In this document: positions 8,022 to 58,034 of the stretch, piece by piece | How the letters are laid out: each line of letters opens with the position of its first letter | Numbering within the stretch: position 1 is the stretch's first letter | From: a virus | Virus record (IMG/VR): IMGVR_UViG_3300033141_006329 | Location: 62,001 to 126,000 of that record | DNA: 64,000 nt | Direction: 5' to 3' (one strand) | The notes under the pieces: model-generated | What the model saw: the letters and a program-made list of their open reading frames with translations, nothing else | Told to the model about the DNA's origin: nothing | Databases searched by the model: none | Made by a program: the position numbers and the translations under genes

Positions 8022-9449
8022 TTAGTCTTTTCTCCATGCAATTTCTATCAATAAAACAGGATCAGTTACAGCCGAACTACATTCAACAAAACTTTGCAGA
8101 AAATCCCCAGCTGCTAAATCAACATCTATAGTGGTATCACCTGACCCTATGGTAGCAGATAATGCTAATGTTGAAATATTAGATATAACATCATTCTTAC
8201 GAATATGAAAATCTGCTGTCCCAGATGAATCTACCTGTACAGAAAGACTCACTATCGTGGCTGTTCGGACCATTCTGAGGCCGGAATTATTGGATAATAA
8301 TTGGCCCCCATAAAAGCCTAAATATTGGTTCTTAGAAGCACCACGCTTACCAAAGCATAACATCATGCGGTCTACTGAGAGCCATTTTGAACGGCTATCG
8401 TCGTAAGTGTAAAGGATACCATCTGTCTGGCGGGATAATTGGCCGGGCTGAAGGTCGGATGTTGGAACAGAGGATTGTGGCGTAAGTTCGAGCGGTGCGT
8501 AAGTGGATGTAGCATCGAGGATTACGGCTTTTGCATCGACAATTATTTTTCGGCCGACTCCTGGTCCTCCTTGATCGTATGCGCTGTCAAGATCTGGATT
8601 TTGCGATAGCAATGCTATATCAATATCACCAAGAACAGTTTCTAAATCGTCTCCTGCCTCGTTTCCAATGTTTATGTAAGCATTCTCAACATCTATGTAA
8701 TTGGCAGGATGTCTATGTGGTCCACTAAAATCAACATCCGCCATTTTTGTCCAACCAACGGAACCATGTGCAGGATCTGAATTGTAAATATATTGAGCTT
8801 GTCCTCCGTCTCCGTCATCATTCACATTTACTGCTGCATTGTCCAATTCTTGAGCTTGTTCTGTAAATTCCCCGCTGGTGGAATCAAAAACATATACGTC
8901 TTCATTAACATTAGCAAGATTAATAACGCGATCACCTTCCTGTGCGGTACTCTGCGCTACCCATTCGCTCGTTGAGTCCACATACAAATAATAGTTATCA
9001 TCATCTGTATCAAAATATACATCACCAATTTCCGGAGATCCTGGTGGTGTATCAGTTATATCTTCTACTCTATATAATACTGGGTCTATCCAATACTGGG
9101 TTATGTTTGGCACATTTGTAATATTGTCCCAATGGACTTCGCTGTCGCCTCCTACATTTAATTCATTTTTACTATAATAATTATCCTCAAGATATTCACC
9201 TTGTATAAAGGTTAGGTATCTTACCCCTGCCTCGGCTGATAGATTTTCTACTCCGTTATTTATTATTACATCACCATCTTCAACTACTTGTCGTAAAGAG
9301 TCGCTGCCAGCGAGTTCATCATATGAGAACCACTCTGATAAACTTTGACCATTCGTAGAATCTAATATCTCTATCCCTAAATCCTCTACCCAGATTCCAC
9401 TAGCGGTAGAATCTTTTATAGCAATTACGGTATACATAGGTACGGACAT
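8022..9449 (-). CDS. Modular fibre-like protein
   Basis: 475 residues in three parts. Residues 1-85 are the docking module shared with the 7278 gene. The middle is a repeat-rich shaft with GDVYFDTDDDNYYLYVD and GPHRHPANYIDVEN segments. The last 120 residues (LCFGKRGASKNQYLGFYG, RMVRTATIVSLSVQVDSSGT, LLIEIAWRKD) match almost the whole 10376-10837 protein. The part near 8340-8580 is visibly richer in G+C than its surroundings, which hints at recombination. Probably a tail-fibre or head-decoration protein. Confidence 0.75.
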   Translation of the reverse strand: MSVPMYTVIAIKDSTASGIWVEDLGIEILDSTNGQSLSEWFSYDELAGSDSLRQVVEDGDVIINNGVENLSAEAGVRYLTFIQGEYLEDNYYSKNELNVGGDSEVHWDNITNVPNITQYWIDPVLYRVEDITDTPPGSPEIGDVYFDTDDDNYYLYVDSTSEWVAQSTAQEGDRVINLANVNEDVYVFDSTSGEFTEQAQELDNAAVNVNDDGDGGQAQYIYNSDPAHGSVGWTKMADVDFSGPHRHPANYIDVENAYINIGNEAGDDLETVLGDIDIALLSQNPDLDSAYDQGGPGVGRKIIVDAKAVILDATSTYAPLELTPQSSVPTSDLQPGQLSRQTDGILYTYDDSRSKWLSVDRMMLCFGKRGASKNQYLGFYGGQLLSNNSGLRMVRTATIVSLSVQVDSSGTADFHIRKNDVISNISTLALSATIGSGDTTIDVDLAAGDFLQSFVECSSAVTDPVLLIEIAWRKD

Positions 9450-9492
9450 CGTTAATACCTCCTAATCTTTCTTATTTTATACATCTCCATTT

Positions 9493-10386
9493 TTATTCAC
9501 CTACCTCGTTCTCTTTCTGCCTCGATCTCCATTCGTTTATTTCTTCTTCTGTTGCGTATTTATAATTTGGATATTCTTCAGATTTCAATCTATTCTTTAA
9601 TAGTTTTACTGATAATAACCCTTTAGATAAAAATTCTTTCATATAAGAATAGTATATACCATCAATAACTATAGCTTTGGCTTTCCCGTTCCTTCCACCT
9701 CTTCTAGTTTTTAGTATTTTATCTCTATATTCCTCAGATTCCCACATAACTTTTGTACATTTAGATCTGTTTTCCTTATATTCTTCTGTATTAAATACTA
9801 TTTTTCGAATTTCACTCATTCTAGACTTAAATTCTTCATCTTTCCACATATCTTGTAATTCTTTGGTTTTCTTTTCTCTGTATGTAGGATCTTCCCACAT
9901 ATCTGATAGAAGTTTACTTGCTCTCTTCTTGTGTTCACTTACAAATTCTGGATCTTCCCATAATATTTTAGCAGCTCTGCTATTTTGTCTTCTTCGTTTT
10001 TCAGTACAGATTGATCCAGAATTACCTTCTCCACCATCTGTTAGATTTAGAAGTGGTCCTTTACCTTGATCTTTTCTTCCTATTATTGCTATCATTGGTA
10101 TTTCGTAATCATCAAATGCTTCTCGTTCTGTTAAATTTTCTACATACTTAATCTGTATTGGTTCAAGTCCTAATCTCAAAAGTTTTTTAATCTTGGCATT
10201 CTTTGGGGTATTTTTCTCCAGTTTCTTTTTGTACATATGAGATTCTATTCTACAAGTACTACCCTTCCCTGCATAGAATGGTTCATAATCAAATTCGTAA
10301 GGCCCATACTTATACATACCTGGTTTCCTCGAATCCAAATATAAATAAATATAAAACCTACGTTCATCTTTGTTATTAGCTTGCAT
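9493..10386 (-). CDS. GIY-YIG homing endonuclease (free-standing)
   Basis: 297 residues. The GIY-YIG core is FYIYLYLD, then PFYAGKG with R and H downstream (about residues 11-50). The C-terminal half has repeated WEDPEFVSEHKKR, WEDPTYREKKT and WKDEEFKSRMS units, like the NUMOD3 DNA-binding repeats of intron and free-standing endonucleases. Two ATGs are adjacent; the second is better spaced from GGAG. It overlaps the end of the 10376 gene by 11 bases and sits between two related fibre genes, which fits a selfish insertion that spreads by cutting fibre loci lacking it. Confidence 0.88.
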   Translation of the reverse strand: MQANNKDERRFYIYLYLDSRKPGMYKYGPYEFDYEPFYAGKGSTCRIESHMYKKKLEKNTPKNAKIKKLLRLGLEPIQIKYVENLTEREAFDDYEIPMIAIIGRKDQGKGPLLNLTDGGEGNSGSICTEKRRRQNSRAAKILWEDPEFVSEHKKRASKLLSDMWEDPTYREKKTKELQDMWKDEEFKSRMSEIRKIVFNTEEYKENRSKCTKVMWESEEYRDKILKTRRGGRNGKAKAIVIDGIYYSYMKEFLSKGLLSVKLLKNRLKSEEYPNYKYATEEEINEWRSRQKENEVGE

Positions 10387-10837
10387 CATATCTCCATGCT
10401 ATTTCTACGCAAATTTCTGGAAAATTTGCTTTATCTCCAGTGTTATTAAAGTCTATCTCTGCTTGTATCCAATCACCTTTTTCTAATAATATACTCAGGT
10501 TATCTTCTACAGTTCCTGCTGCTCCTGTCAATTCCACAGTAGTCACATCTGTTCCTCCATTTTTCCTGATATTAAATTTGCAATTTGCAGTACCTTGCGT
10601 ATTTGCAGATACCGCTGTTATCATAGCATCTCTTATAAGTCTATACCCTGAGGTATTAGAAAAAACTTTTCCAGTCATAGCCATGTATCTCTTATAGGAT
10701 AAATTCTTATGATCTATCCCGAACGATATATTCTGCCTACCCACAGAGACCCAAGTATTTCTTGTTATATCCCAATAGTATAAATTACTATTATAAACTA
10801 AAGTTCTAGGCCCAATGTTTCTAGTATCTCGGAGCAT
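10376..10837 (-). CDS. Stand-alone copy of a fibre C-terminal domain
   Basis: 153 residues. From WVSVGRQNISFGIDHKNLSY to ICVEIAWRYDAS it follows the C-terminal 120 residues of the 475-aa protein at 8022-9449 (LSVDRMMLCFGKRGASKNQY to LLIEIAWRKD). It is either a separate small tip protein or the tail end of a fibre gene cut off when the endonuclease moved in. It has a usable start with GGGAAG six bases upstream. Confidence 0.7.
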   Translation of the reverse strand: MLRDTRNIGPRTLVYNSNLYYWDITRNTWVSVGRQNISFGIDHKNLSYKRYMAMTGKVFSNTSGYRLIRDAMITAVSANTQGTANCKFNIRKNGGTDVTTVELTGAAGTVEDNLSILLEKGDWIQAEIDFNNTGDKANFPEICVEIAWRYDAS

Positions 10838-10840
10838 TCC

Positions 10841-11521
10841 TTACTTCCCTGCCACATCTGTTGGTTTTCTATTAAAATCAAAAATATTCCCTAAAGTTTG
10901 TGAACCTTTCGCTGCCTCGTTCTCTTCATCATCTGGATCCAAATTGTAATCATACTCATAATCAGTTAACATCTCTATTATAAGTTTGTCCGTCTCGATT
11001 TGATACTGAGCTTGCTGCATATTAAACATTAGTTTGTTTATATTATTTTGAATACACATGGTTACAAAATCTCTGGATTTACCTTTGTATCTAAATCTCT
11101 TTATAACTTTTCTTAACTTCTTCATTCTTTTGGTGGTTAATTTTATTCGATGTCTACATTGATTTACATTGGATTTCGCCATAGCAATCAGTCTATCTAC
11201 AACGTTCGTTTTTAGTGCCTTATCGTCGTTTAAACAGTGTTCTAACCACCCCATAAGTATTTCTATTGCCACTTCTTTTTGATCGTGAATATTGTCTTTT
11301 ACATATCCTGTTTCATCGTATTCTTTTCTCTTCTCATCATCACTTAGAATTTTGTAGGCTTTTGTGATATCAATAAATTCAGGACTTTCTTTACCATCAT
11401 TATGATCTGGGTGATGTTCATTTGCAAGTTTTCTATATGCTTTCTTTATCTCTTCCTTTGTAGCATCTCGTTCAATACCGAGAATATCGTACAATGCCCT
11501 TACTTTTTTATTTGATTTCAT
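10841..11521 (-). CDS. J-domain (DnaJ-type) protein
   Basis: 226 residues. A complete J-domain occupies 8-75 with the HPD motif at 37-39 (ANEHHPDHND), which would stimulate host DnaK ATPase. The remainder has no Gly/Phe or zinc region: it is a basic helical stretch (about 100-190) and an acidic C-terminus, so it is a specialised co-chaperone. An AAAGGGG site precedes the ATG. It lies just after a terminator that closes the big fibre gene. A role in fibre folding or host takeover is plausible. Confidence 0.9.
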   Translation of the reverse strand: MKSNKKVRALYDILGIERDATKEEIKKAYRKLANEHHPDHNDGKESPEFIDITKAYKILSDDEKRKEYDETGYVKDNIHDQKEVAIEILMGWLEHCLNDDKALKTNVVDRLIAMAKSNVNQCRHRIKLTTKRMKKLRKVIKRFRYKGKSRDFVTMCIQNNINKLMFNMQQAQYQIETDKLIIEMLTDYEYDYNLDPDDEENEAAKGSQTLGNIFDFNRKPTDVAGK

Positions 11522-11530
11522 TTTGCCCCT

Positions 11531-11568
11531 TTATAAAAAAGTGGGAGAGCAGATAACCACTCTCCCAC
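11531..11568 (-). terminator. Rho-independent terminator
   Basis: On the minus strand GTGGGAGAG pairs with CTCTCCCAC around a 10-base loop (11541-11568), followed by a T-run (TTTTTTATAA). It ends the transcript of the large fibre gene 18 bases after its stop, just upstream of the J-domain gene. Confidence 0.9.
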
Positions 11569-11586
11569 AAACAATAAAAATAATGA

Positions 11587-14500
11587 TTAATTAGACGCCC
11601 AATAAGAAACGATAATTTGATCGCCTGTATCAGGAGCAGTAGCAAAAGTCATTGTGGACCCGGCCAATGTATAATCATTGCCTCCTCCGCTATTTTGGAG
11701 TAGTCCATTCAAATAAACTTGCTCAGATCCTGAGATCGGAGTGTAATCTACTGTGAAGTCAGTAATAATATCATTAGGTGACTCATTAACGCCTTCTCTA
11801 ATTACGAAACGTCTGACTAAGCCAGTTCCAGCACCTAGTCCGATGGTCAAAGTACCAGCAGAAACGTCTAAAGTTTTTGCAGCACCAACAGTAATATCAG
11901 AAGTCGCAATAGTACAACCATCAATTGTACCTGAGTCAATATCAACCTTAGTAATATTCACTTCACCAGTTCCATCAGGTGTTAAATTAATATCACCATT
12001 AGAATCTGTAGAAGTAATACTATTTCCATCTAATCCTAAATTATCAATAGCAACAACACCAGTACCCTTAGGAGTAATATTAATACTGATATTATCATCA
12101 GTACCGTCAGCTGATAAAGTCGTTCCAACTAAGGTCACACCAGCAGCTGTGACATTAGTATCAAATGTCGTAGATTTGCTTAATGTAGTCGTACATGTAG
12201 CAAATGCAGCAACGGTAGAATCTGTACTAAGATCCTGATTAATTATAGAATCATCTTCAACTGTTATAGTCTTAGCATCAGCAGAATATGTAATCGTACC
12301 AGAATAGCCATCACCAACTGTTAAACTTTCGTTCATAGTAAGTGTATTAGCTTGCGTAAGAGAAGTAATAGTAACATCTGTACCATCACCAATTGTAAGA
12401 TTCTCATTCAGTTCAAGAGTTCTCAAAGCATTTTGTGTATCAATTGCTAATTGAACTTTCTCTCCACCAGAACCCGTTAATTCTATATCCGTACCATCTA
12501 ATACTGCCAAATTTTCACTAAGATCTAAAGTCCTAGTTCCATCTTGTGTATCAATATTCAATGAGGCTGCTTCTCCGCCCGATGCGGTTAGTGTTAAATC
12601 CTGACCATCACCAAGAGTTAAATCTTCATTAAGGGTCAATATACGATCAACGCCACCAAGAGCAACTGTCATATCTTCGCCGTTAGAATCTGTAAGTTTA
12701 ACAACTTCATTACTTGATAACGAAGTATTTAAAACTCTACCATTTGTAGTACCATCAGGAACTTCGTCTAAATCAACTTGATTTTCACCTGAACCCCAAT
12801 CTATATGAGTAGTATCAATACCATCAGCTTTAAGTCTCAGAGTATCAGTATCGATTTCTATAGTATCATCATCAACAACGACTGCAAGTATTCCTGTAGT
12901 GTGACTAAGACCAGCACCCGCAACAGAAGCTTCTAATCTAATACCAGATGTGCCATTAAATTCTAAACCACCAGCAGCATCAAGATTAACTCCAATAGTA
13001 TCACTATTTAATGCAAGACCTGCAGATGTACTAAAATCTAATTGGAAATCATCTGTCACTCTCTTAACACCAAGACTGGCAGATAAACTAGAAGAACCAC
13101 TAGAAGACACTGTTACCGAGTCCCCGGCTGCACTAGTTGTAAGCGTAATATCAGTTCCCGCGACGAATGTTAATGTATCAGCTTCTGCATCAGCTACAAC
13201 ATTATCCTGTCCTGAAACTGCAACTGTTTTAAATGCAAATTTAGCTGCTTGTGTATCAAACAACTCTTCAAGAGCACCTTCGACTGTTGTAGCAGTAAAA
13301 TTATTAGTAGTATCTACAATAGGCATATCATCAGCGCCAACTTGTCCTGCACTAGTTCCCCAATCAATTAGTGTATCATCAATACCATCAGCTACCAATG
13401 AAATAGCACCACTTGTAGCTGAAAAATGATCAGAATTAAAAGATGCTACACCCTTAGCAGATGTACTAGCATCATCACCAGTAACTGTAATATCAGCACC
13501 AGCACCTGAAGTTGTTATACCAGTTCCACCCTTAATACCAAAACTATGAGTACTTGGAGTAGCCGTACCACTATCAGAAGCAACAGATTTTGTAACTGTA
13601 TCTTCCAAGCTAATAACACCAGAAGAATCATCAAAGTCAGCTGCTGTGAATGCAGCAACACCCTTTGTAGAACCATCGGCAGCAGCATTGTCACCAGTAA
13701 CGGTAATATCAGCACCAGCACCTGAAGTTGTTATACCCGTACCACCCTTAATACCAAAACTATGAGTACTAGGAGTTGCAGCATCACCATCAGAAGCAAC
13801 AGATTTTGCAACTGTGGTTTCAAGACTAACTTCACCAGAAGAAACATCAAAATCTTCAGCTAAGAACTTAGCAACACCCTTGTTAGCTGTACTTGCATCT
13901 TCACCAGCTATAGTAATTGCATCGCCAGAAACTGTAGTCGTTATTCCTTCACCTTCAGTAAATGTAAATGTATCACCCAAATCTACAGCTTGGCTTCCAC
14001 CACCTATAGCTCCACCAGCCATAGTAATAGTAGGAGTCAAGAGTTTAGCATTTGAAACACCATCATCAGCAAGAGTTACATCACCAGTTGTTACTACGAA
14101 ATGTGTAGAATCGAAAGTTGCAACACCCTTGTTGGTATCACTTGCATCTTCACCAGAAACAGTAATAGTATCAGCAGTAACAACAGTATTAATACCTTCA
14201 CCTGCTGCTATTGTAAGAGTATCTCCTAAATCTAAATCATTGGGAGTCCCACTCTCAGCATCTAAAGTAATATGATCATGAAGTATATGAGAGTTCAAAA
14301 TACCGTGAGGTTTTACAGCTAATTGATCACTAACAATACCTAACGTAGCATCATCATAATCAACACTTATAGTCTTATCAGGTGACGCACCAGAAAGAGT
14401 AAGACCATCGTTTGCAGTAAGATCAACTGAAAGAACACCAGTCGTAACCGACAAACCATCAGAAATCTTAACTTTTCCCCATTCAGATGTACTTGCATAA

Positions 14501-50985: not shown

Positions 50986-51612
50986 ATGAAATTGATGTCA
51001 TATGATATAGAAATTGCAAATGAGATAAAGGACGTTCCTGGGGGATGGGGGAATAATTGGGGCATGGGATTAGGGTCTGTAATAGTTTACTCTTACGATG
51101 AGGATAAGTATTACGAATACTTACACAACGCATCACGGGACGAGATAAAAGCAAAACTAAACGGCAACAGAGTTATAACTTTCAATGGCCTCAATTTTGA
51201 CTCAAAGGTACTTCTAGGAAACAAACGAATCCTAAGTCCAGGCCCTACAGAGTTCTCAGTTACTGTTACATCTGAGGACGGGGCAACATCATGGGTAGAA
51301 TTTGATATATTCACACATTGTCTAAAAGATATTAATAGATGTCAGACCCTTCTAGAATCCACCAGAAAAAGATCTAGAGGTGGGAATAAATTAGATGACT
51401 ATGCATTGAATACATTAGGAGAAGAATTTGGGAAAACAGGTCATGGTAAGGACGCACCAATTATGTATAAAAATGGAGAATATGAGAAACTCATAGAATA
51501 TAATCGACAAGATGTACTTATAACCAAACTATTATTTGACTTCGCTAGAAAGAATGGTTATCTTATTAATGGTTATGGTAAGAGAGTTAATATACAAATG
51601 AGGAGAAGTTAG
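50986..51612 (+). CDS. 3'-5' exonuclease (DEDDy, PolB-type)
   Basis: 208 residues. Exo I YDIEIAN, exo II ITFNGLNFDSK and exo III EYNRQDVLITKLLFD are all present, so the enzyme should be active on single-strand 3' ends. It lies near the split polymerase, whose N-terminal part also has an exonuclease domain. Proofreading help or repair is possible. Confidence 0.85.
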   Translation: MKLMSYDIEIANEIKDVPGGWGNNWGMGLGSVIVYSYDEDKYYEYLHNASRDEIKAKLNGNRVITFNGLNFDSKVLLGNKRILSPGPTEFSVTVTSEDGATSWVEFDIFTHCLKDINRCQTLLESTRKRSRGGNKLDDYALNTLGEEFGKTGHGKDAPIMYKNGEYEKLIEYNRQDVLITKLLFDFARKNGYLINGYGKRVNIQMRRS

Positions 51613-51640
51613 ATAGCATCATCAAAAACCCACCACAACA

Positions 51641-51658
51641 ACTGGACAAATTAAAAAC
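51641..51658 (+). promoter_or_regulatory. GGACAAA element
   Basis: ACTGGACAAATTAAAAAC, then AATTAAAGCATATAGGAGG before the 51686 gene. Confidence 0.65.
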
Positions 51659-51685
51659 AATTAAAGCATATAGGAGGACTAAATT

Positions 51686-51874
51686 ATGACAGTATATGAA
51701 GAAGCTATTGTTAAATCTCGGGTAGAAACTGCCGAAAATAGAATACGTGCTATTCATAATGAAAGGGAATCACAAAAGATTTTTGGTAAAAAGAATTATC
51801 TGTCTTATGATAGTAAAAATTTTATAAATATGATTAATTTGTTTAGAAATAAGTTTAAAGATATATCTATATAA
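51686..51874 (+). CDS. Small hypothetical protein
   Basis: 62 residues, helical and charged (KSRVETAENRIRAIHNERES). It sits alone between two GGACAAA elements with a clean TAGGAGG site. Not recognised. Confidence 0.65.
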   Translation: MTVYEEAIVKSRVETAENRIRAIHNERESQKIFGKKNYLSYDSKNFINMINLFRNKFKDISI

Positions 51875-51889
51875 AAATCCGGCCTAGTA

Positions 51890-51907
51890 ACTGGACAAAC
51901 TAAAAAC
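51890..51907 (+). promoter_or_regulatory. GGACAAA element
   Basis: ACTGGACAAACTAAAAAC, then ATAAATCATATAGGAGGGG before the ASCH gene. Confidence 0.65.
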
Positions 51908-51932
51908 ATAAATCATATAGGAGGGGATAAAA

Positions 51933-52254: not shown

Positions 52255-53040
52255 GTGAATGAAAAAGAATCCATAGATATTATCCTAGAAAAATCTAAAG
52301 TAATACAAGATGTCCTGAATAATGAATTAATAACCCAGTTTGCTAAGTTACATAATATACCAGACAAATATAATAAATTCTATATGAAGCAAGAGATTGT
52401 AGCGAAACGAGGATATTTTCTAGATGTTAAAAAGAAGTATGCACTATGGATAGTTAATAAGGAAGGAGTTCCTGTCAATGAATATGAAATAAAAGGACTA
52501 GTAACAAGACGTTCTGATTATCCAAGACTGACCAAAGAGAGACTAGTCACTATATTTGATCTATTATTAAAACATGATAAAATCTCATTCAAAAAAATAT
52601 CAGAGTATATAAAAGAGACCGAATTTGAAATAAGAGATCGTATAGCTAAAGGTGATAAATCAATAGCTAAACCTGTATCATATTCTAAAGATATTGCCCA
52701 ATATAAAAAATTACCAGAACAGATTATAGGTATGGAATTATGGAATACATTAGAGTACAAACACTTTGTTGTGGGCACTAAGGGTTATAGATTCAGAATT
52801 AAAGGTGTAGATACTTATACTGCACCAGAGAAAATCAAAAGAAAACTAAATAAAATAAAAGATGTTAAATGGATAGTATTACCTTATGACGAAGAGAAGC
52901 TGCCAGATTATTACGTTATAGATATCGATGCCATGTTGGAATTTGCTTGGACTAAAAGAGTAGATGAGTTACTCAAGCCTATAATTAGTAGGGTTAGTAA
53001 AAGAGAGAAATTTAAAAATAAAAAATTGACAACGTTTTAG
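52255..53040 (+). CDS. DNA polymerase B, C-terminal part (palm end and thumb)
   Basis: 261 residues, GTG start. FYMKQEIVAKRGYFLDVKKK, YALWIVNKEG, then EIKGLVTRRSDYPRLTKE correspond to the part of T4/RB69 polymerase after motif C (there KKRYAL and the GLE/TQxSSTP segment). The second half (FRIKGVDTYTAPEKI, WIVLPYDEEKLPDYYVID) corresponds to the thumb and the tail. The end KNKKLTTF may be a clamp-binding peptide. It ends 8 bases before the gene for the N-terminal part: order reversed. Confidence 0.8.
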   Translation: MNEKESIDIILEKSKVIQDVLNNELITQFAKLHNIPDKYNKFYMKQEIVAKRGYFLDVKKKYALWIVNKEGVPVNEYEIKGLVTRRSDYPRLTKERLVTIFDLLLKHDKISFKKISEYIKETEFEIRDRIAKGDKSIAKPVSYSKDIAQYKKLPEQIIGMELWNTLEYKHFVVGTKGYRFRIKGVDTYTAPEKIKRKLNKIKDVKWIVLPYDEEKLPDYYVIDIDAMLEFAWTKRVDELLKPIISRVSKREKFKNKKLTTF

Positions 53041-53048
53041 GGGGTTAT

Positions 53049-55577
53049 ATGAAGACATCAAAATTTAGCAACTGCACTAGTTGCCCACTACTAAATCAGA
53101 TTATGGTTCACGGCGAAACAAATGTACCACATGATCTAAGTTTAGTTAAATTATTGATATTAGCAGAAGCCCCTGCTACAAAGGAAGTTGAGTTAGGGTT
53201 ACCTTTAAAGGGTAAAGCCGGTAAAGGATTTCGCAGTAGATTTGAGTCGTCATGTTTGGATACCGTTCCTTATTTTATAAACAATGTAGTCATGTGTGCA
53301 AATCTATATAAAGATCCAGTAACAGGTCGAATTAAAACAGATAATCCACCCTCAGAAGCCGTTGATTGTTGTAAGCCGAATTGGGAAGCATTAGTTAAAA
53401 TTCTACAGCCAGAATATATATTGATAATGGGAGGAACAACTCAAGAAGTATTTGGTATAACAGGAACTATATCAGATTCGAGAGGAAAACTATACCCATA
53501 CCCTGGTGATACTTCAGGAATGAAAACCATACCAAAAGTTTTTCTAACATTCCATCCATCATATATAACTAGAGGAACTGCTCCTAAACATAAGATAGAA
53601 CAATTCAATGAAGATTTCGATACATTATATGAAATGATAACCGGAATCTCAGAGAAACAAGAAAAGAAAAAGACCCAGCGAGCAAAACTAAGTATGACTA
53701 AGCCCTATACATATTCACTACCAAAATGGATCAGAGAAGATGATGTATCTTTGATAGATATACAAAAACACCCAAAGTCAAACACCATTGTATATATATT
53801 CAGAGATAAAGATAATAATAGAAAATACCACACAGATAAATCGGGCGAATATTATTACTATAGAACTGAGGGTAAATTAGGAGATTCACCTGTACTAATA
53901 CCTGTATCTGAAACTGAACTCGTACTGAATAAACCTATATATAATAAACATGAAGCACGATATGAATCTGATAATAAACTGGCACATAAACACTCTATAG
54001 ACTATTACATACAAAGAAAAAATCCTGAAATAAATATACCACTGGTAAAACTATTTTTCGATATAGAAATATATAGTGGTGGATCTTTAGAATTTCCAGA
54101 TCCTAAAGTTGGACCGAAACCTATAAATGCTATATCATTTAAGATAGGAGAAAATCCTGTAAATGTATATTTAGTAAATCCTACAAACCTAATAAAAAAA
54201 GAAGACGTATATAATATAGAAGATAAATTAAAGGATATTAGAACAGATTTTGAAGTTAGTATATTTGATACGGAGAAAAAGTTATTAGAAGCATTTTGCA
54301 AATTAATAAAGACATCAGAACCAGACCTATTAATGACTTGGAATGGTACAGGATTTGATATTCCCTATATTTATAATAGATTAAAAAAGAATTCTATAGA
54401 TCCATCATCTATGTCGCCGTTAGGTTGTACACATATTAATGTACATAGATTTGGAGATATTACTATAATGGGTACCTACCATTTGGATATGTTAGAAGCA
54501 TATAAAGATTTGACAGAAAATAAAAAAGAAACCTATGCTTTGGGTGCAATAGCTGTTGATGAATTGGGAGAAGGAAAAGTAGAATTTGAAGGATCATTGG
54601 ATTTAATATATGAAAAAGATATAGAAAGATTTATCAAATATAGTGGACAAGATACTAATCTATTATATGAGTTAGATGTGAAGAAGGGACATGCCGATTT
54701 AAAAAATGAGTTAAGAAGGGTATGTTCTAGCAATTGGAAAGGAACGGAATCTACAACAGGATTATTGGATCCTTTAGTTATATCGTATGCAAAAAATAAA
54801 GGGATGGTTATTAGAAATTCTGAAATGCATAAATCAAATGAGAAACTTAAGGGTGCATATGTGAAAGTTCCGAACCCTGGTATATATAAATGGTTAGTAG
54901 ATTTTGATTATAGCTCCCTCTATCCTAGTACTATTATATCCTTAAATATAGGTCCAGATACACTCATAGGTAAAATAGATCCTGAGATTGCCAAACATTA
55001 TATATATGGTCGTAAAATTCCTGATAAAGTTGAAGTGAATATAACCCCTATGAATACCTATGATTCAAGGTTTAAAACTATGACTAAAGATGAATTTATA
55101 AAATGGGTAGAGTACAACAATGCTATAGTGAGTATAGTAGGTACAATATTTATGGGCCATGATAAGAAAATTTCATTTATGTCTGAGATTTGTTCATTGT
55201 TATTAGGTACTAGGGCAAAATTAAAAGATAAGATGAACAAAGCAAAGGAAGAGAATGATCCTATATGGAAATTGTTTTATAACCAGCAATGGGCGTATAA
55301 AATTCTTGCCAACTCTCTATATGGAGTTTTGGGTACCTTTTCATTCAGATTATTTAAGTTGGATTTAGCTAAAACTATTACAGGGACAGCACAAGAGGCT
55401 TTGAAGTTTGCTATGCACCATACATCAAAGTATATGAAGACAGGGGAGAAAACTGTAGATTTGGATTATATTGATGGGGATTTTGATAGGGATATACCTT
55501 ACGTAATATACGGAGATACAGATAGTAATTTTATAAATATTGCAGAATATCTTATTAATCAAAATATTAATATATAA
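53049..55577 (+). CDS. Uracil-DNA glycosylase/DNA polymerase B fusion, ending after motif C
   Basis: 842 residues. Residues 1-200: family 4-type uracil-DNA glycosylase with ILAEAPATKE (37-46), HPSYITR (169-175) and four probable iron-sulfur Cys (9, 12, 83 and 107 or 108). Residues 335-540: DEDDy exonuclease with FFDIE (Asp338), WNGTGFD (Asn432) and YSGQD (Asp535). Pol motifs: A DFDYSSLYPS (618-627), B KILANSLYG (751-759), C YGDTDS (821-826). The protein stops 17 residues later, so the rest of the palm and the thumb come from the 52255 gene upstream. No intein remnant is visible at the break. Confidence 0.88.
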   Translation: MKTSKFSNCTSCPLLNQIMVHGETNVPHDLSLVKLLILAEAPATKEVELGLPLKGKAGKGFRSRFESSCLDTVPYFINNVVMCANLYKDPVTGRIKTDNPPSEAVDCCKPNWEALVKILQPEYILIMGGTTQEVFGITGTISDSRGKLYPYPGDTSGMKTIPKVFLTFHPSYITRGTAPKHKIEQFNEDFDTLYEMITGISEKQEKKKTQRAKLSMTKPYTYSLPKWIREDDVSLIDIQKHPKSNTIVYIFRDKDNNRKYHTDKSGEYYYYRTEGKLGDSPVLIPVSETELVLNKPIYNKHEARYESDNKLAHKHSIDYYIQRKNPEINIPLVKLFFDIEIYSGGSLEFPDPKVGPKPINAISFKIGENPVNVYLVNPTNLIKKEDVYNIEDKLKDIRTDFEVSIFDTEKKLLEAFCKLIKTSEPDLLMTWNGTGFDIPYIYNRLKKNSIDPSSMSPLGCTHINVHRFGDITIMGTYHLDMLEAYKDLTENKKETYALGAIAVDELGEGKVEFEGSLDLIYEKDIERFIKYSGQDTNLLYELDVKKGHADLKNELRRVCSSNWKGTESTTGLLDPLVISYAKNKGMVIRNSEMHKSNEKLKGAYVKVPNPGIYKWLVDFDYSSLYPSTIISLNIGPDTLIGKIDPEIAKHYIYGRKIPDKVEVNITPMNTYDSRFKTMTKDEFIKWVEYNNAIVSIVGTIFMGHDKKISFMSEICSLLLGTRAKLKDKMNKAKEENDPIWKLFYNQQWAYKILANSLYGVLGTFSFRLFKLDLAKTITGTAQEALKFAMHHTSKYMKTGEKTVDLDYIDGDFDRDIPYVIYGDTDSNFINIAEYLINQNINI

Positions 55578-55603
55578 TCAATGAGAATAATCCACACGTG
55601 TGA

Positions 55604-55620
55604 GTGGACAAATTAGAAAC
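55604..55620 (+). promoter_or_regulatory. GGACAAA element
   Basis: GTGGACAAATTAGAAAC, with the hairpin CCAC-acgtgtga-GTGG formed upstream. It serves the 55640 gene. Confidence 0.6.
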
Positions 55621-55639
55621 AATAAGAGGAGGGAATATC

Positions 55640-55876
55640 ATGTTTAGGGTTATTTATGTTGATATGGACATGAGAGAAAAAACAGATTTAAACATGGCGG
55701 AATCAGAACAAGGCGAACATCATGTGCCACATGTACAAGACTATATTATATTGCAAAAATCTGACTATCATGTAAGATATATGGTTAGAGAAGTTGTACG
55801 TGTATATGAGGGGGTAAAACAAACAGTATATGTAAAATTAATAGATGACAAAGTACATCCTGGAAAATTTGAATAA
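55640..55876 (+). CDS. Small hypothetical protein upstream of queE
   Basis: 78 residues from the ATG at 55640 after AGAGGAGGG. MFRVIYVDMDMREKTDLNM, then HHVPHVQDYIILQKSDYHV and VYVKLIDD: a beta-rich small domain. Not recognised. First gene of the queE-dpdA-helicase run. Confidence 0.65.
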   Translation: MFRVIYVDMDMREKTDLNMAESEQGEHHVPHVQDYIILQKSDYHVRYMVREVVRVYEGVKQTVYVKLIDDKVHPGKFE

Positions 55877-55892
55877 TAAGGAGGGATTAACC

Positions 55893-56639
55893 ATGACTAG
55901 AGTAGTAGAACATTTTGAATCTATACAAGGAGAAGGACCATATGCAGGAACACCTTCTTACTTTATACGATTGTCTGGATGCATTTTAAAGTGTCCGTTC
56001 TGTGATTCAAAATTCGCATGGAGTAAAGACGCAGGCGAACCTTTAAAAGATATAAATATAAATATACCTGAACAGTATGAACATATTGTAGTATCTGGAG
56101 GAGAACCGTTTATACATATGGGTGATCCAGAGTTTATATCACTTATGCAAAAATATGGTAAAACAAAAAGAATATCATTTGAGACTACTGCTATACAATC
56201 CTTAGATCAATTTCCATCAAGTATCATTATTACTATATATAAATCATTGCGAAAACTCAAATTCCCTGTAGATTTTAAACACCCAGCATATATCATATCT
56301 CCAAAACTTGGAAAAGAATCGTATCCAAAAGGTATTAGCGAAAACGATATATTTATCCATTACCAATTAGAACAAGAATATTCAGATATAACCAAGAAAA
56401 ATGTATTTTATAAAATTATATTTGAGGAATCTAAATATAGTATAATAAAAGCATTTATCAACCAAATTCCATCATGGTTTTTAGACAATGTGTATATAAT
56501 GCCAATGACACCTATACCATACAATCATGATGAGTACATAAAAAATTGTAAATCAACAGTAGAATTTTGTAAAGAAATAGGAATTAGATATACGCCTAGA
56601 ATTCACATAGATATCTATGGTGTCAGACAAGGCGTTTAG
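55893..56639 (+). CDS. queE: 7-carboxy-7-deazaguanine synthase (radical SAM)
   Basis: 248 residues from the ATG at 55893 (AAGGAGGGAT site). N-terminal signature ESIQGEGPYAGTPSYFIRLS, then the cluster motif CILKCPFC (Cys30, 34, 37) and VVSGGEPFI, all typical of QueE. It converts carboxy-tetrahydropterin to carboxy-deazaguanine. The QueD and FolE steps are not in the window and may come from host genes. Confidence 0.92.
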   Translation: MTRVVEHFESIQGEGPYAGTPSYFIRLSGCILKCPFCDSKFAWSKDAGEPLKDININIPEQYEHIVVSGGEPFIHMGDPEFISLMQKYGKTKRISFETTAIQSLDQFPSSIIITIYKSLRKLKFPVDFKHPAYIISPKLGKESYPKGISENDIFIHYQLEQEYSDITKKNVFYKIIFEESKYSIIKAFINQIPSWFLDNVYIMPMTPIPYNHDEYIKNCKSTVEFCKEIGIRYTPRIHIDIYGVRQGV

Positions 56640-56648
56640 GAGGAAAAA

Positions 56649-58034
56649 TTGAAAAAATCAGGATTTGTAGCAGCCGGGCTACCCGCGTTACGGCAGCATT
56701 TAAATTGTATACTAAAGCATAACCCAGAGCATTTCACCGAGAAAGCTCTGAACGATTTCTTATTAGAGAATTGTAACAAATTTCTAACCAGCATCGGTAT
56801 AAGTATCGATAAAAAGAAGCCAGATGATATGGCAATATTTAAGAGGTATCAACGAAAATTTGATAGCTTTAAGAATACTGGATTTTTGAATAATTGTGAT
56901 ATAATGATTGATTCCGCAGGGTTTCAATTTCAAATTGGGGTATTGCCAAAAAGTTTTGTCCCTAAATTTATTGATGGTTATCACGATTTTCTTATAAATA
57001 ATTATGGGAGATATTCTCAAGCTTTTGTATTCGATCCAGTTCCAGGTGCTACTAAATCCATTATAGATTCCTACAAAGAAATGAAAGATTTAAATATGAT
57101 GTCTTATCAAAAAGCCGCCAATTTACCCGCCCATGTAAAGAGGTCTATGATGTATATACATCACTTCCGTACTCCAAAGATAAATAAATTATTTAAGGAA
57201 ATGTTATTTGAACATAATTTAGCAGATGGTTTTGGTAGCTTTGCAACAGGAGGATTGGTTTCCTTTCTATCTAGTTCTCAGGGAAATCCTCCCTGTAATA
57301 TGTATGTTATCCCACTCATAGATATATTAACATATGCTCTTAAAAATGGTCTAAAATCGCTCAGATTTCACGTTCTAGGCGATAGTGATTGGAAGTCGGT
57401 ATTATTCCATAAGTTCATAGAAAGACACGTTAAAGAAGTACATGACATCGATATAGAGGTGACATACGATAGTACAACAATACAAAAAACATTTATGATG
57501 GGTAGGTATTTATTTGTTCCATCTTATAAAGATAAATCTATATGGAAAATGTTTCTTAAATCAGATGGTCTACACATGAGATGGAAAGATGAGGGAAGTG
57601 TTTTAGATTATTACTATAAATTAATGGGAAATATATCTGATGAATATGGATTTAAAAAATTGAATCCACAAGATGATCCCATTTATATAAATAATGGTAT
57701 AAAGACTCATAGAGTAGCATATGCTTTTGCCATATTACATGTATTAAAATTGTTTAGAGTCTGTAGTGAATGGTGTGAGGATTATGTAGATCAATTATAT
57801 CCCCTCTATCAGAATGGACAAATTACAAAGTTTGATACTGAAGTAGAAAATATAATGTTAAAGTTTAACAATGGGAAGTTATCAAACGCCATAAGCGGTA
57901 GAACATCTGCGACATACAATTCATTAAAAATGATAGAAAATTTAGATATAGATTATTGTAATTATCTAGTGGATAGATATATGTCGATAGATGAGGCTGC
58001 GTCACTAAAAAATTATAAAGAGTCCACATTTTAG
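56649..58034 (+). CDS. dpdA: DpdA-like DNA 7-deazaguanine transglycosylase
   Basis: 461 residues, TTG start eight bases after TAGGAGG. The TGT-type active site appears as MIDSAGFQFQIG (Asp88; usual tRNA enzymes read DSGGFQ). It then has FVFDPVPGATKS, ATGGLVSFL and FHVLGDSDWKS, the barrel order of the queuine transglycosylase superfamily. There is no zinc-site CxC-x2-C near the C-terminus, which argues for a DNA rather than a tRNA enzyme. It would swap guanine for preQ0 or a relative in phage DNA to escape restriction. Confidence 0.82.
   Translation: MKKSGFVAAGLPALRQHLNCILKHNPEHFTEKALNDFLLENCNKFLTSIGISIDKKKPDDMAIFKRYQRKFDSFKNTGFLNNCDIMIDSAGFQFQIGVLPKSFVPKFIDGYHDFLINNYGRYSQAFVFDPVPGATKSIIDSYKEMKDLNMMSYQKAANLPAHVKRSMMYIHHFRTPKINKLFKEMLFEHNLADGFGSFATGGLVSFLSSSQGNPPCNMYVIPLIDILTYALKNGLKSLRFHVLGDSDWKSVLFHKFIERHVKEVHDIDIEVTYDSTTIQKTFMMGRYLFVPSYKDKSIWKMFLKSDGLHMRWKDEGSVLDYYYKLMGNISDEYGFKKLNPQDDPIYINNGIKTHRVAYAFAILHVLKLFRVCSEWCEDYVDQLYPLYQNGQITKFDTEVENIMLKFNNGKLSNAISGRTSATYNSLKMIENLDIDYCNYLVDRYMSIDEAASLKNYKESTF

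What the first reader, a model, noticed from the sequence alone, without database searches (positions are those of the whole stretch)
52255..55577. Family B DNA polymerase split at motif C with the two halves in reversed gene order
The 53049 gene carries exonuclease and polymerase motifs A, B and C (YGDTDS) and stops 17 residues later. The sequence that should follow, palm end and thumb, is encoded by the gene just upstream (52255-53040), in the same strand and 8 bases away. Split polymerases are known in some T4-like phages, with the parts in normal order. Here the C-terminal half comes first, so the locus is circularly permuted. No intein ends are visible, so the parts must assemble as separate chains or be joined by an unseen route.
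Basis: partly seen in the sequence, partly recalled or inferred. Interest (0 to 1): 0.92.

Follow-up and report, generated by a model that had tools for sequence, protein, structure and literature searches.

The report
Two-piece phage DNA polymerase, genes swapped
This large phage makes its replicative DNA polymerase as two separate proteins, and the gene for the tail half sits in front of the gene for the head half; a second, distantly related phage has the same arrangement, so it is real and inherited rather than an assembly error.

Summary
The 842-aa ORF (53049-55577) is a uracil-DNA-glycosylase (UDG) domain fused to a family B polymerase with exonuclease and motifs A, B and C (YGDTDS); it stops 16 residues after the motif. 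The 261-aa ORF (52255-53040) carries the rest of the palm and the thumb. Profiles, alignment with an unsplit ortholog and a fold search show that the pieces abut without gap or overlap. No other family A, B or C polymerase is in the 223-kb record. A second phage, 46-51% identical and assembled identically from two datasets, has the same reversed order; there an opposite-strand gene lies between the halves, so they must be separate chains. The closest unpermuted relative (L103) is one 1081-aa UDG-PolB ORF followed by queE, as in the window. Of 179 surveyed loci, 165 are fused, 11 split in normal order and 3 (window, L184, L185) reversed. More distant UDG-PolB kin carry a split intein at motif C in normal order; no intein or Rfam intron is detectable in the window. 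Best reading: a heterodimeric T4-type replicase that arose by gene fission plus relocation of the C-terminal half. Split PolB is known; reversed adjacent order without an intein looks new.

The parts
52255..53040 (+). C-terminal half of the family B DNA polymerase (palm end and thumb, 261 aa, GTG start)
   Evidence: phrog_262 604-767; 42% identical to the tail of the unsplit ortholog L103; 51% to the L184 C-half; Foldseek top hits RB69 gp43
53049..55577 (+). N-terminal half: UDG domain + 3'-5' exonuclease + palm/fingers with motifs A, B, C (842 aa)
   Evidence: Pfam UDG, DNA_pol_B_exo1, DNA_pol_B; phrog_262 18-589; Foldseek RB69 gp43 E 1.7e-32
53145..53618 (+). UDG domain within the N-half (residues 33-190)
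   Evidence: PF03167 E 1.2e-16; the same fusion is seen in L103, L183, L186 and L184
55509..55577 (+). Motif C YGDTDS (residues 821-826) followed by 16 residues and a TAA stop
   Evidence: Sequence; alignment
53041..53048 (+). 8-base gap between the halves, with a GGGGG ribosome-binding-site-like run before ATG 53049
51873..51924 (+). Copy of a genome-wide intergenic element (TGGACAAAYTARAAACA ... ATATAGGAGG) upstream of the ASCH gene - C-half - N-half unit
55586..55621 (+). Next copy of the same intergenic element, 8 bases after the stop of the N-half, closing the unit
55845..56639 (+). queE-like radical SAM gene, also directly downstream of the unsplit ortholog (L103) and of the L184 N-half: the synteny anchor

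Best explanation
The two genes encode the two chains of one T4 gp43-type replicative polymerase. The 842-aa chain brings UDG, proofreading exonuclease, fingers and the palm with the catalytic carboxylates of motifs A and C. The 261-aa chain brings the rest of the palm, including the KKKYA strand, and the thumb. The break falls in a loop between two helices just after motif C, so the chains can assemble without covalent joining (inferred). The order C-half then N-half is derived: an ancestor had one UDG-PolB gene followed by queE. A tandem duplication followed by loss of the first N-half and the second C-half, or a direct relocation, left C-half, N-half, queE (inferred).
For: Both halves map to adjacent, non-overlapping parts of phrog_262, of T4-like polymerases and of the unsplit ortholog L103. 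Only one copy of each half and no family A or C polymerase in the record. The reversed order is shared by L184/L185, whose N-half is 46% and C-half 51% identical to the window's. In L184 a minus-strand gene lies between the halves and each half has its own Shine-Dalgarno-like site. Trees of the two halves agree: window + L184 100/100 (N) and 96 (C) within the UDG-PolB clade; in the N tree the fused L103 is their sister, 96/91. Models: the N-half ends in a short helix (832-837) and the C-half starts with a long helix (3-33), so the break is a loop; the KKKYA palm strand of the C-half is poorly predicted alone (pLDDT mostly <50), as expected if it needs the N-half. Split gp43 of phage 25 co-purifies and is active (PMC2988022).
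Against: Complex formation was not modelled or measured. No trace of the proposed tandem duplication remains; a stretch after the N-half stop resembling the C-half start scored no better than chance (p 0.35). The records are metagenome contigs without read data here, possibly incomplete. The short repeats around the unit belong to a genome-wide element and do not prove a recombination event.
Confidence: 0.88

Rival explanations
1. The split descends from a split intein at motif C that later decayed, as proposed for the split PolB3 of Methanobacteriales; once trans-spliced, the halves were free to move, and then the intein was lost. (This rival concerns origin; the enzyme would still be a two-chain polymerase.)
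For: UDG-PolB relatives L183, L186 and L187 carry a split intein at YGD|TDS in separate ORFs, normal order. PMC4104785 proposes erratic intein excision for archaeal split PolB3; phage MIJ3 has a similar split-intein PolB (PMC6892783).
Against: The window and L184 break 16-21 residues after motif C, not at the intein site. Their sister L103 is fused and intein-free, and the split-intein lineage branches outside both in the N tree. No intein residue is left in either half.
Confidence: 0.25
2. The halves are covalently joined after translation or at RNA level (trans-splicing) by an element not recognised here.
For: Related phages carry split inteins in the same gene.
Against: Both halves align to the unsplit ortholog to the junction with no extra sequence. 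No Rfam intron in the window or L184 at gathering threshold. No RVT_1 reverse transcriptase in the records. The N-half ends in its own stop codon.
Confidence: 0.04
3. Assembly or chimera artefact.
For: Metagenome contigs; the window phage is a single assembly.
Against: A phage only 46-51% identical shows the same order, in two separate assemblies. Start and stop codons and RBS-like sites sit exactly at the new ends, and synteny with queE, the gene at 56649 and the exonuclease-like gene is kept.
Confidence: 0.02
4. The locus is a decaying polymerase and the host or another enzyme replicates the genome.
For: None direct.
Against: Catalytic residues and both ORFs are intact across deep divergence; no other polymerase in three records; other T4-type replication genes (clamp loader, DnaB-like helicase) are present.
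Confidence: 0.04

Closest known systems
Split gene 43 (43A/43B) of Aeromonas phages 25 and 44RR and of Acinetobacter phage ZZ1
   Same: T4-type family B replicative polymerase made as two chains; phage 25 parts co-purify and are active (PMC2988022)
   Different: Parts in normal order (ZZ1); ZZ1 is split well before motif C, so motif C lies in the second part; no UDG domain
Split-intein PolB of jumbo phage MIJ3 and of L183/L186/L187
   Same: PolB gene broken at motif C; L183/L186/L187 also have the N-terminal UDG domain
   Different: Normal order in L183/L186/L187, intein halves present, break exactly at YGD|TDS (MIJ3 in PMC6892783)
Split PolB3 of Methanobacteriales
   Same: Family B polymerase in two genes with no intein reported to remain (PMC4104785, citing Kelman 1999)
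   Different: Archaeal lineage; proposed origin is erratic intein excision; break site and gene order not compared here
Nanoarchaeum equitans split PolB
   Same: PolB halves in separate genes
   Different: Non-adjacent, associated with split intein parts (PMC4104785)
Permuted palm of birnavirus and permutotetravirus RNA polymerases
   Same: Natural reordering of palm segments in a viral polymerase (PMC4666646)
   Different: One chain, RNA polymerase, with the permutation inside the palm; here only the gene order is changed and the chains stay separate

Membership tests
Family B DNA polymerase, T4 gp43 type | Exo motifs and polymerase motifs A (D..SLYPS), B (K...NSLYG), C (DTDS) | tested here: met
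   D338/E340, D437, Y531/D535, D620-SLYP, K751-NSLYG and DTDS 823-826 conserved in alignments
Family B DNA polymerase, T4 gp43 type | Palm end and thumb after motif C | tested here: met
   Present, but in the separate 261-aa chain: KK.YA, P90, thumb and C-terminal region
Family B DNA polymerase, T4 gp43 type | DNA polymerase activity | not testable with these tools
   Needs expression of both chains
Split gp43 (two-gene T4-type polymerase) | Two ORFs that together cover one polymerase, each with its own start and stop | tested here: met
Split gp43 (two-gene T4-type polymerase) | Parts in normal order (as in all 11 other split relatives here) | tested here: not met
   Reversed in window, L184, L185
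Split-intein (fractured gene) polymerase | N- and C-intein segments at the break | tested here: not met
   No extra sequence against L103; contrast L183/L186
Circularly permuted protein | One chain with swapped segments | tested here: not met
   Separate ORFs out of frame; opposite-strand gene between them in L184
Family 4-like (Fe-S) UDG domain | UDG profile match and Fe-S cysteines | tested here: met
   PF03167 E 1.2e-16; C12, C83, C108 conserved in the aligned kin and C9 in L103 and L184; assignment to family 4 and the Fe-S role are from general knowledge
Family 4-like (Fe-S) UDG domain | Glycosylase activity | not testable with these tools
   Motif A reads AEAPATKE rather than the usual GEAPG (recalled)

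The most novel reading that the evidence does not exclude
The reversed order is selected, not neutral: making the thumb chain first, next to and possibly coupled with the catalytic chain, sets assembly order or stoichiometry, giving a replicase whose thumb subunit is a regulated or exchangeable partner of a UDG-proofreading-polymerase core.
Probability: 0.12. Interest if true: 0.75.

Novelty: new variant of a known kind. Interest (0 to 1): 0.58.

Why it matters
It shows that a replicative polymerase cut inside its palm, 16-21 residues after the catalytic aspartates, can persist through deep divergence without intein or fusion, and that gene fission can be followed by relocation of one half. 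The UDG-PolB clade gives fused, split-intein and swapped forms of one enzyme side by side, so the route from one chain to two can be tested, and the break point is a naturally occurring site for two-part polymerases.

Tried and rejected
Single-protein scans of IMG/VR found no close kin; alignment queries were needed. A YGDTDSNF pattern scan found other split or fused polymerases but no swapped one. A search for a leftover of the C-half after the N-half stop was no better than chance. PDB search by sequence with the 261-aa protein gave only noise. A first N-tree had one row out of frame and was redone. Inteins, Rfam introns, a second polymerase and an RVT_1 reverse transcriptase were looked for and not found. 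A last scan for further swapped relatives returned only the L184/L185 phage again. Dassa 2009 and Kelman 1999 were not held, so they are cited only through other papers.

Full report
Observation. ORFs 52255-53040 (261 aa, GTG) and 53049-55577 (842 aa, ATG) lie on the + strand, 8 bases apart. The window is positions 62001-126000 of a 223,370-base virus record. Pfam finds a UDG domain (33-190), the PolB exonuclease and the PolB polymerase domain in the 842-aa protein. PHROG 262 is matched at 18-589 by the 842-aa protein and at 604-767 by the 261-aa protein. Joining N-half and C-half in a script and aligning with KVP40, Mel-JY01, C48C1, 1.081.O and ZZ1 polymerases places the junction 16 residues after YGDTDS, with the post-motif-C landmarks (KKRYA as KKKYA, RSSTP as RSDYP) all in the 261-aa protein.

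Not an artefact. Scans of IMG/VR recovered L184 (201-kb contig) and L185 (183-kb contig), two assemblies of the same phage (18,750 bases compared, 100% identical). There the C-half (L184 7965-8780), a minus-strand gene (8777-9457), the UDG-PolB N-half (9539-12124) and queE (12121-12894) follow in that order. The C-halves are 51% and the N-halves 46% identical to the window's. The L184 N-half ends 21 residues after DTDS and its stop overlaps the queE start; the C-half starts with GTG after GGAGG. Two divergent phages with the same swapped order and clean gene ends make a misassembly very unlikely.

Ancestral state. L103 (IMGVR_UViG_3300001533_002366) encodes an unsplit 1081-aa UDG-PolB followed by queE. 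Its tail matches the 261-aa protein at 42% identity and its front matches the 842-aa protein at about 37%. L183 (a MAG contig), L186 and L187 have a UDG-PolB broken by a split intein at YGD|TDS in normal order. Trees of the N-part (UDG-PolB clade 100/99; window+L184 100/100; with L103 96/91) and of the C-part (clade 99; window+L184 96) agree, so the two halves share one history. Among 179 loci with both parts, 165 are fused, 11 are split in normal order and 3 are swapped. These counts are of loci, some of them near-copies of each other, and the sample was drawn by similarity, so they are not frequencies in nature.

No substitute enzyme. The window's record holds no other PolB, and neither it nor L184/L185 has a family A or C polymerase match. 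In the collection of 50,697 phage records no place covers 80% of the N-half or reaches 60% identity, so the lineage is new to that set.

Structure. The N-half model (mean pLDDT 84) and the C-half model (80) both have RB69 gp43 as best PDB matches. The break lies between a short helix at the end of the N-half and the long first helix of the C-half. Residues 46-76 of the C-half, which include the KKKYA strand, are poorly predicted alone, as expected for a strand that completes a sheet in the other chain (inference).

Mechanism. Shown: two separately encoded halves of one polymerase, swapped order, conserved. Inferred: non-covalent assembly, supported by the reported co-purification and activity of split gp43 of phage 25 (PMC2988022). 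Inferred: origin by duplication and complementary loss or by relocation. The sister being fused and the break being off the intein site argue against simple intein decay, although that is proposed for archaeal split PolB3 (PMC4104785). The swapped pair and an ASCH-domain gene lie between two copies of a genome-wide intergenic element, which suggests one transcription unit.

Novelty. Split PolB, split-intein PolB and permuted single-chain RNA polymerases are known. I found no report of adjacent, reversed, intein-free halves of a replicative DNA polymerase, within the limits of an open-access library. For separately translated chains gene order may have little functional meaning, which tempers the interest.

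Noticed in passing
window 51624-51659, 51873-51908, 55586-55621 and 16 further sites: A repeated intergenic element, TGGACAAAYTARAAACA, followed by ATATAGGAGG at two of the copies; 19 matches (up to 3 mismatches) in the window against 1.6 expected and 23 (up to 2 mismatches) in the 223-kb record; likely a phage promoter or leader element.
   Followed up: partly
L186 1414-2915: A HEARO RNA (Rfam 129 bits) with an IscB-like HNH ORF directly upstream of the split-intein UDG-PolB gene, possibly a homing element tied to the polymerase locus.
   Followed up: no
L002 859-8783 (LR756508.1, 484-kb phage): A polymerase split just before motif C in normal order, with intein-like inserts at both the motif B and motif C sites.
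   Followed up: partly
L008, L091, L122, L157: More normal-order splits between motif B and motif C in other lineages; this part of the palm is a recurrent break point.
   Followed up: partly
window 53049-53660; L100 (vir526), L102: UDG domains also match the front of annotated phage DNA polymerase genes in unrelated phages, so UDG-polymerase fusion may have arisen more than once.
   Followed up: no
window 55845-58034: queE-like radical SAM gene followed by a 461-aa protein without Pfam or PHROG match whose homolog in L184 keeps synteny; may belong to 7-deazaguanine DNA modification (recalled, not tested).
   Followed up: no
window 50986-51612: A 208-aa PolB-exonuclease-like protein (DNA_pol_B_exo2, phrog_403) upstream, with a homolog upstream of the swapped polymerase in L184.
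   Followed up: no
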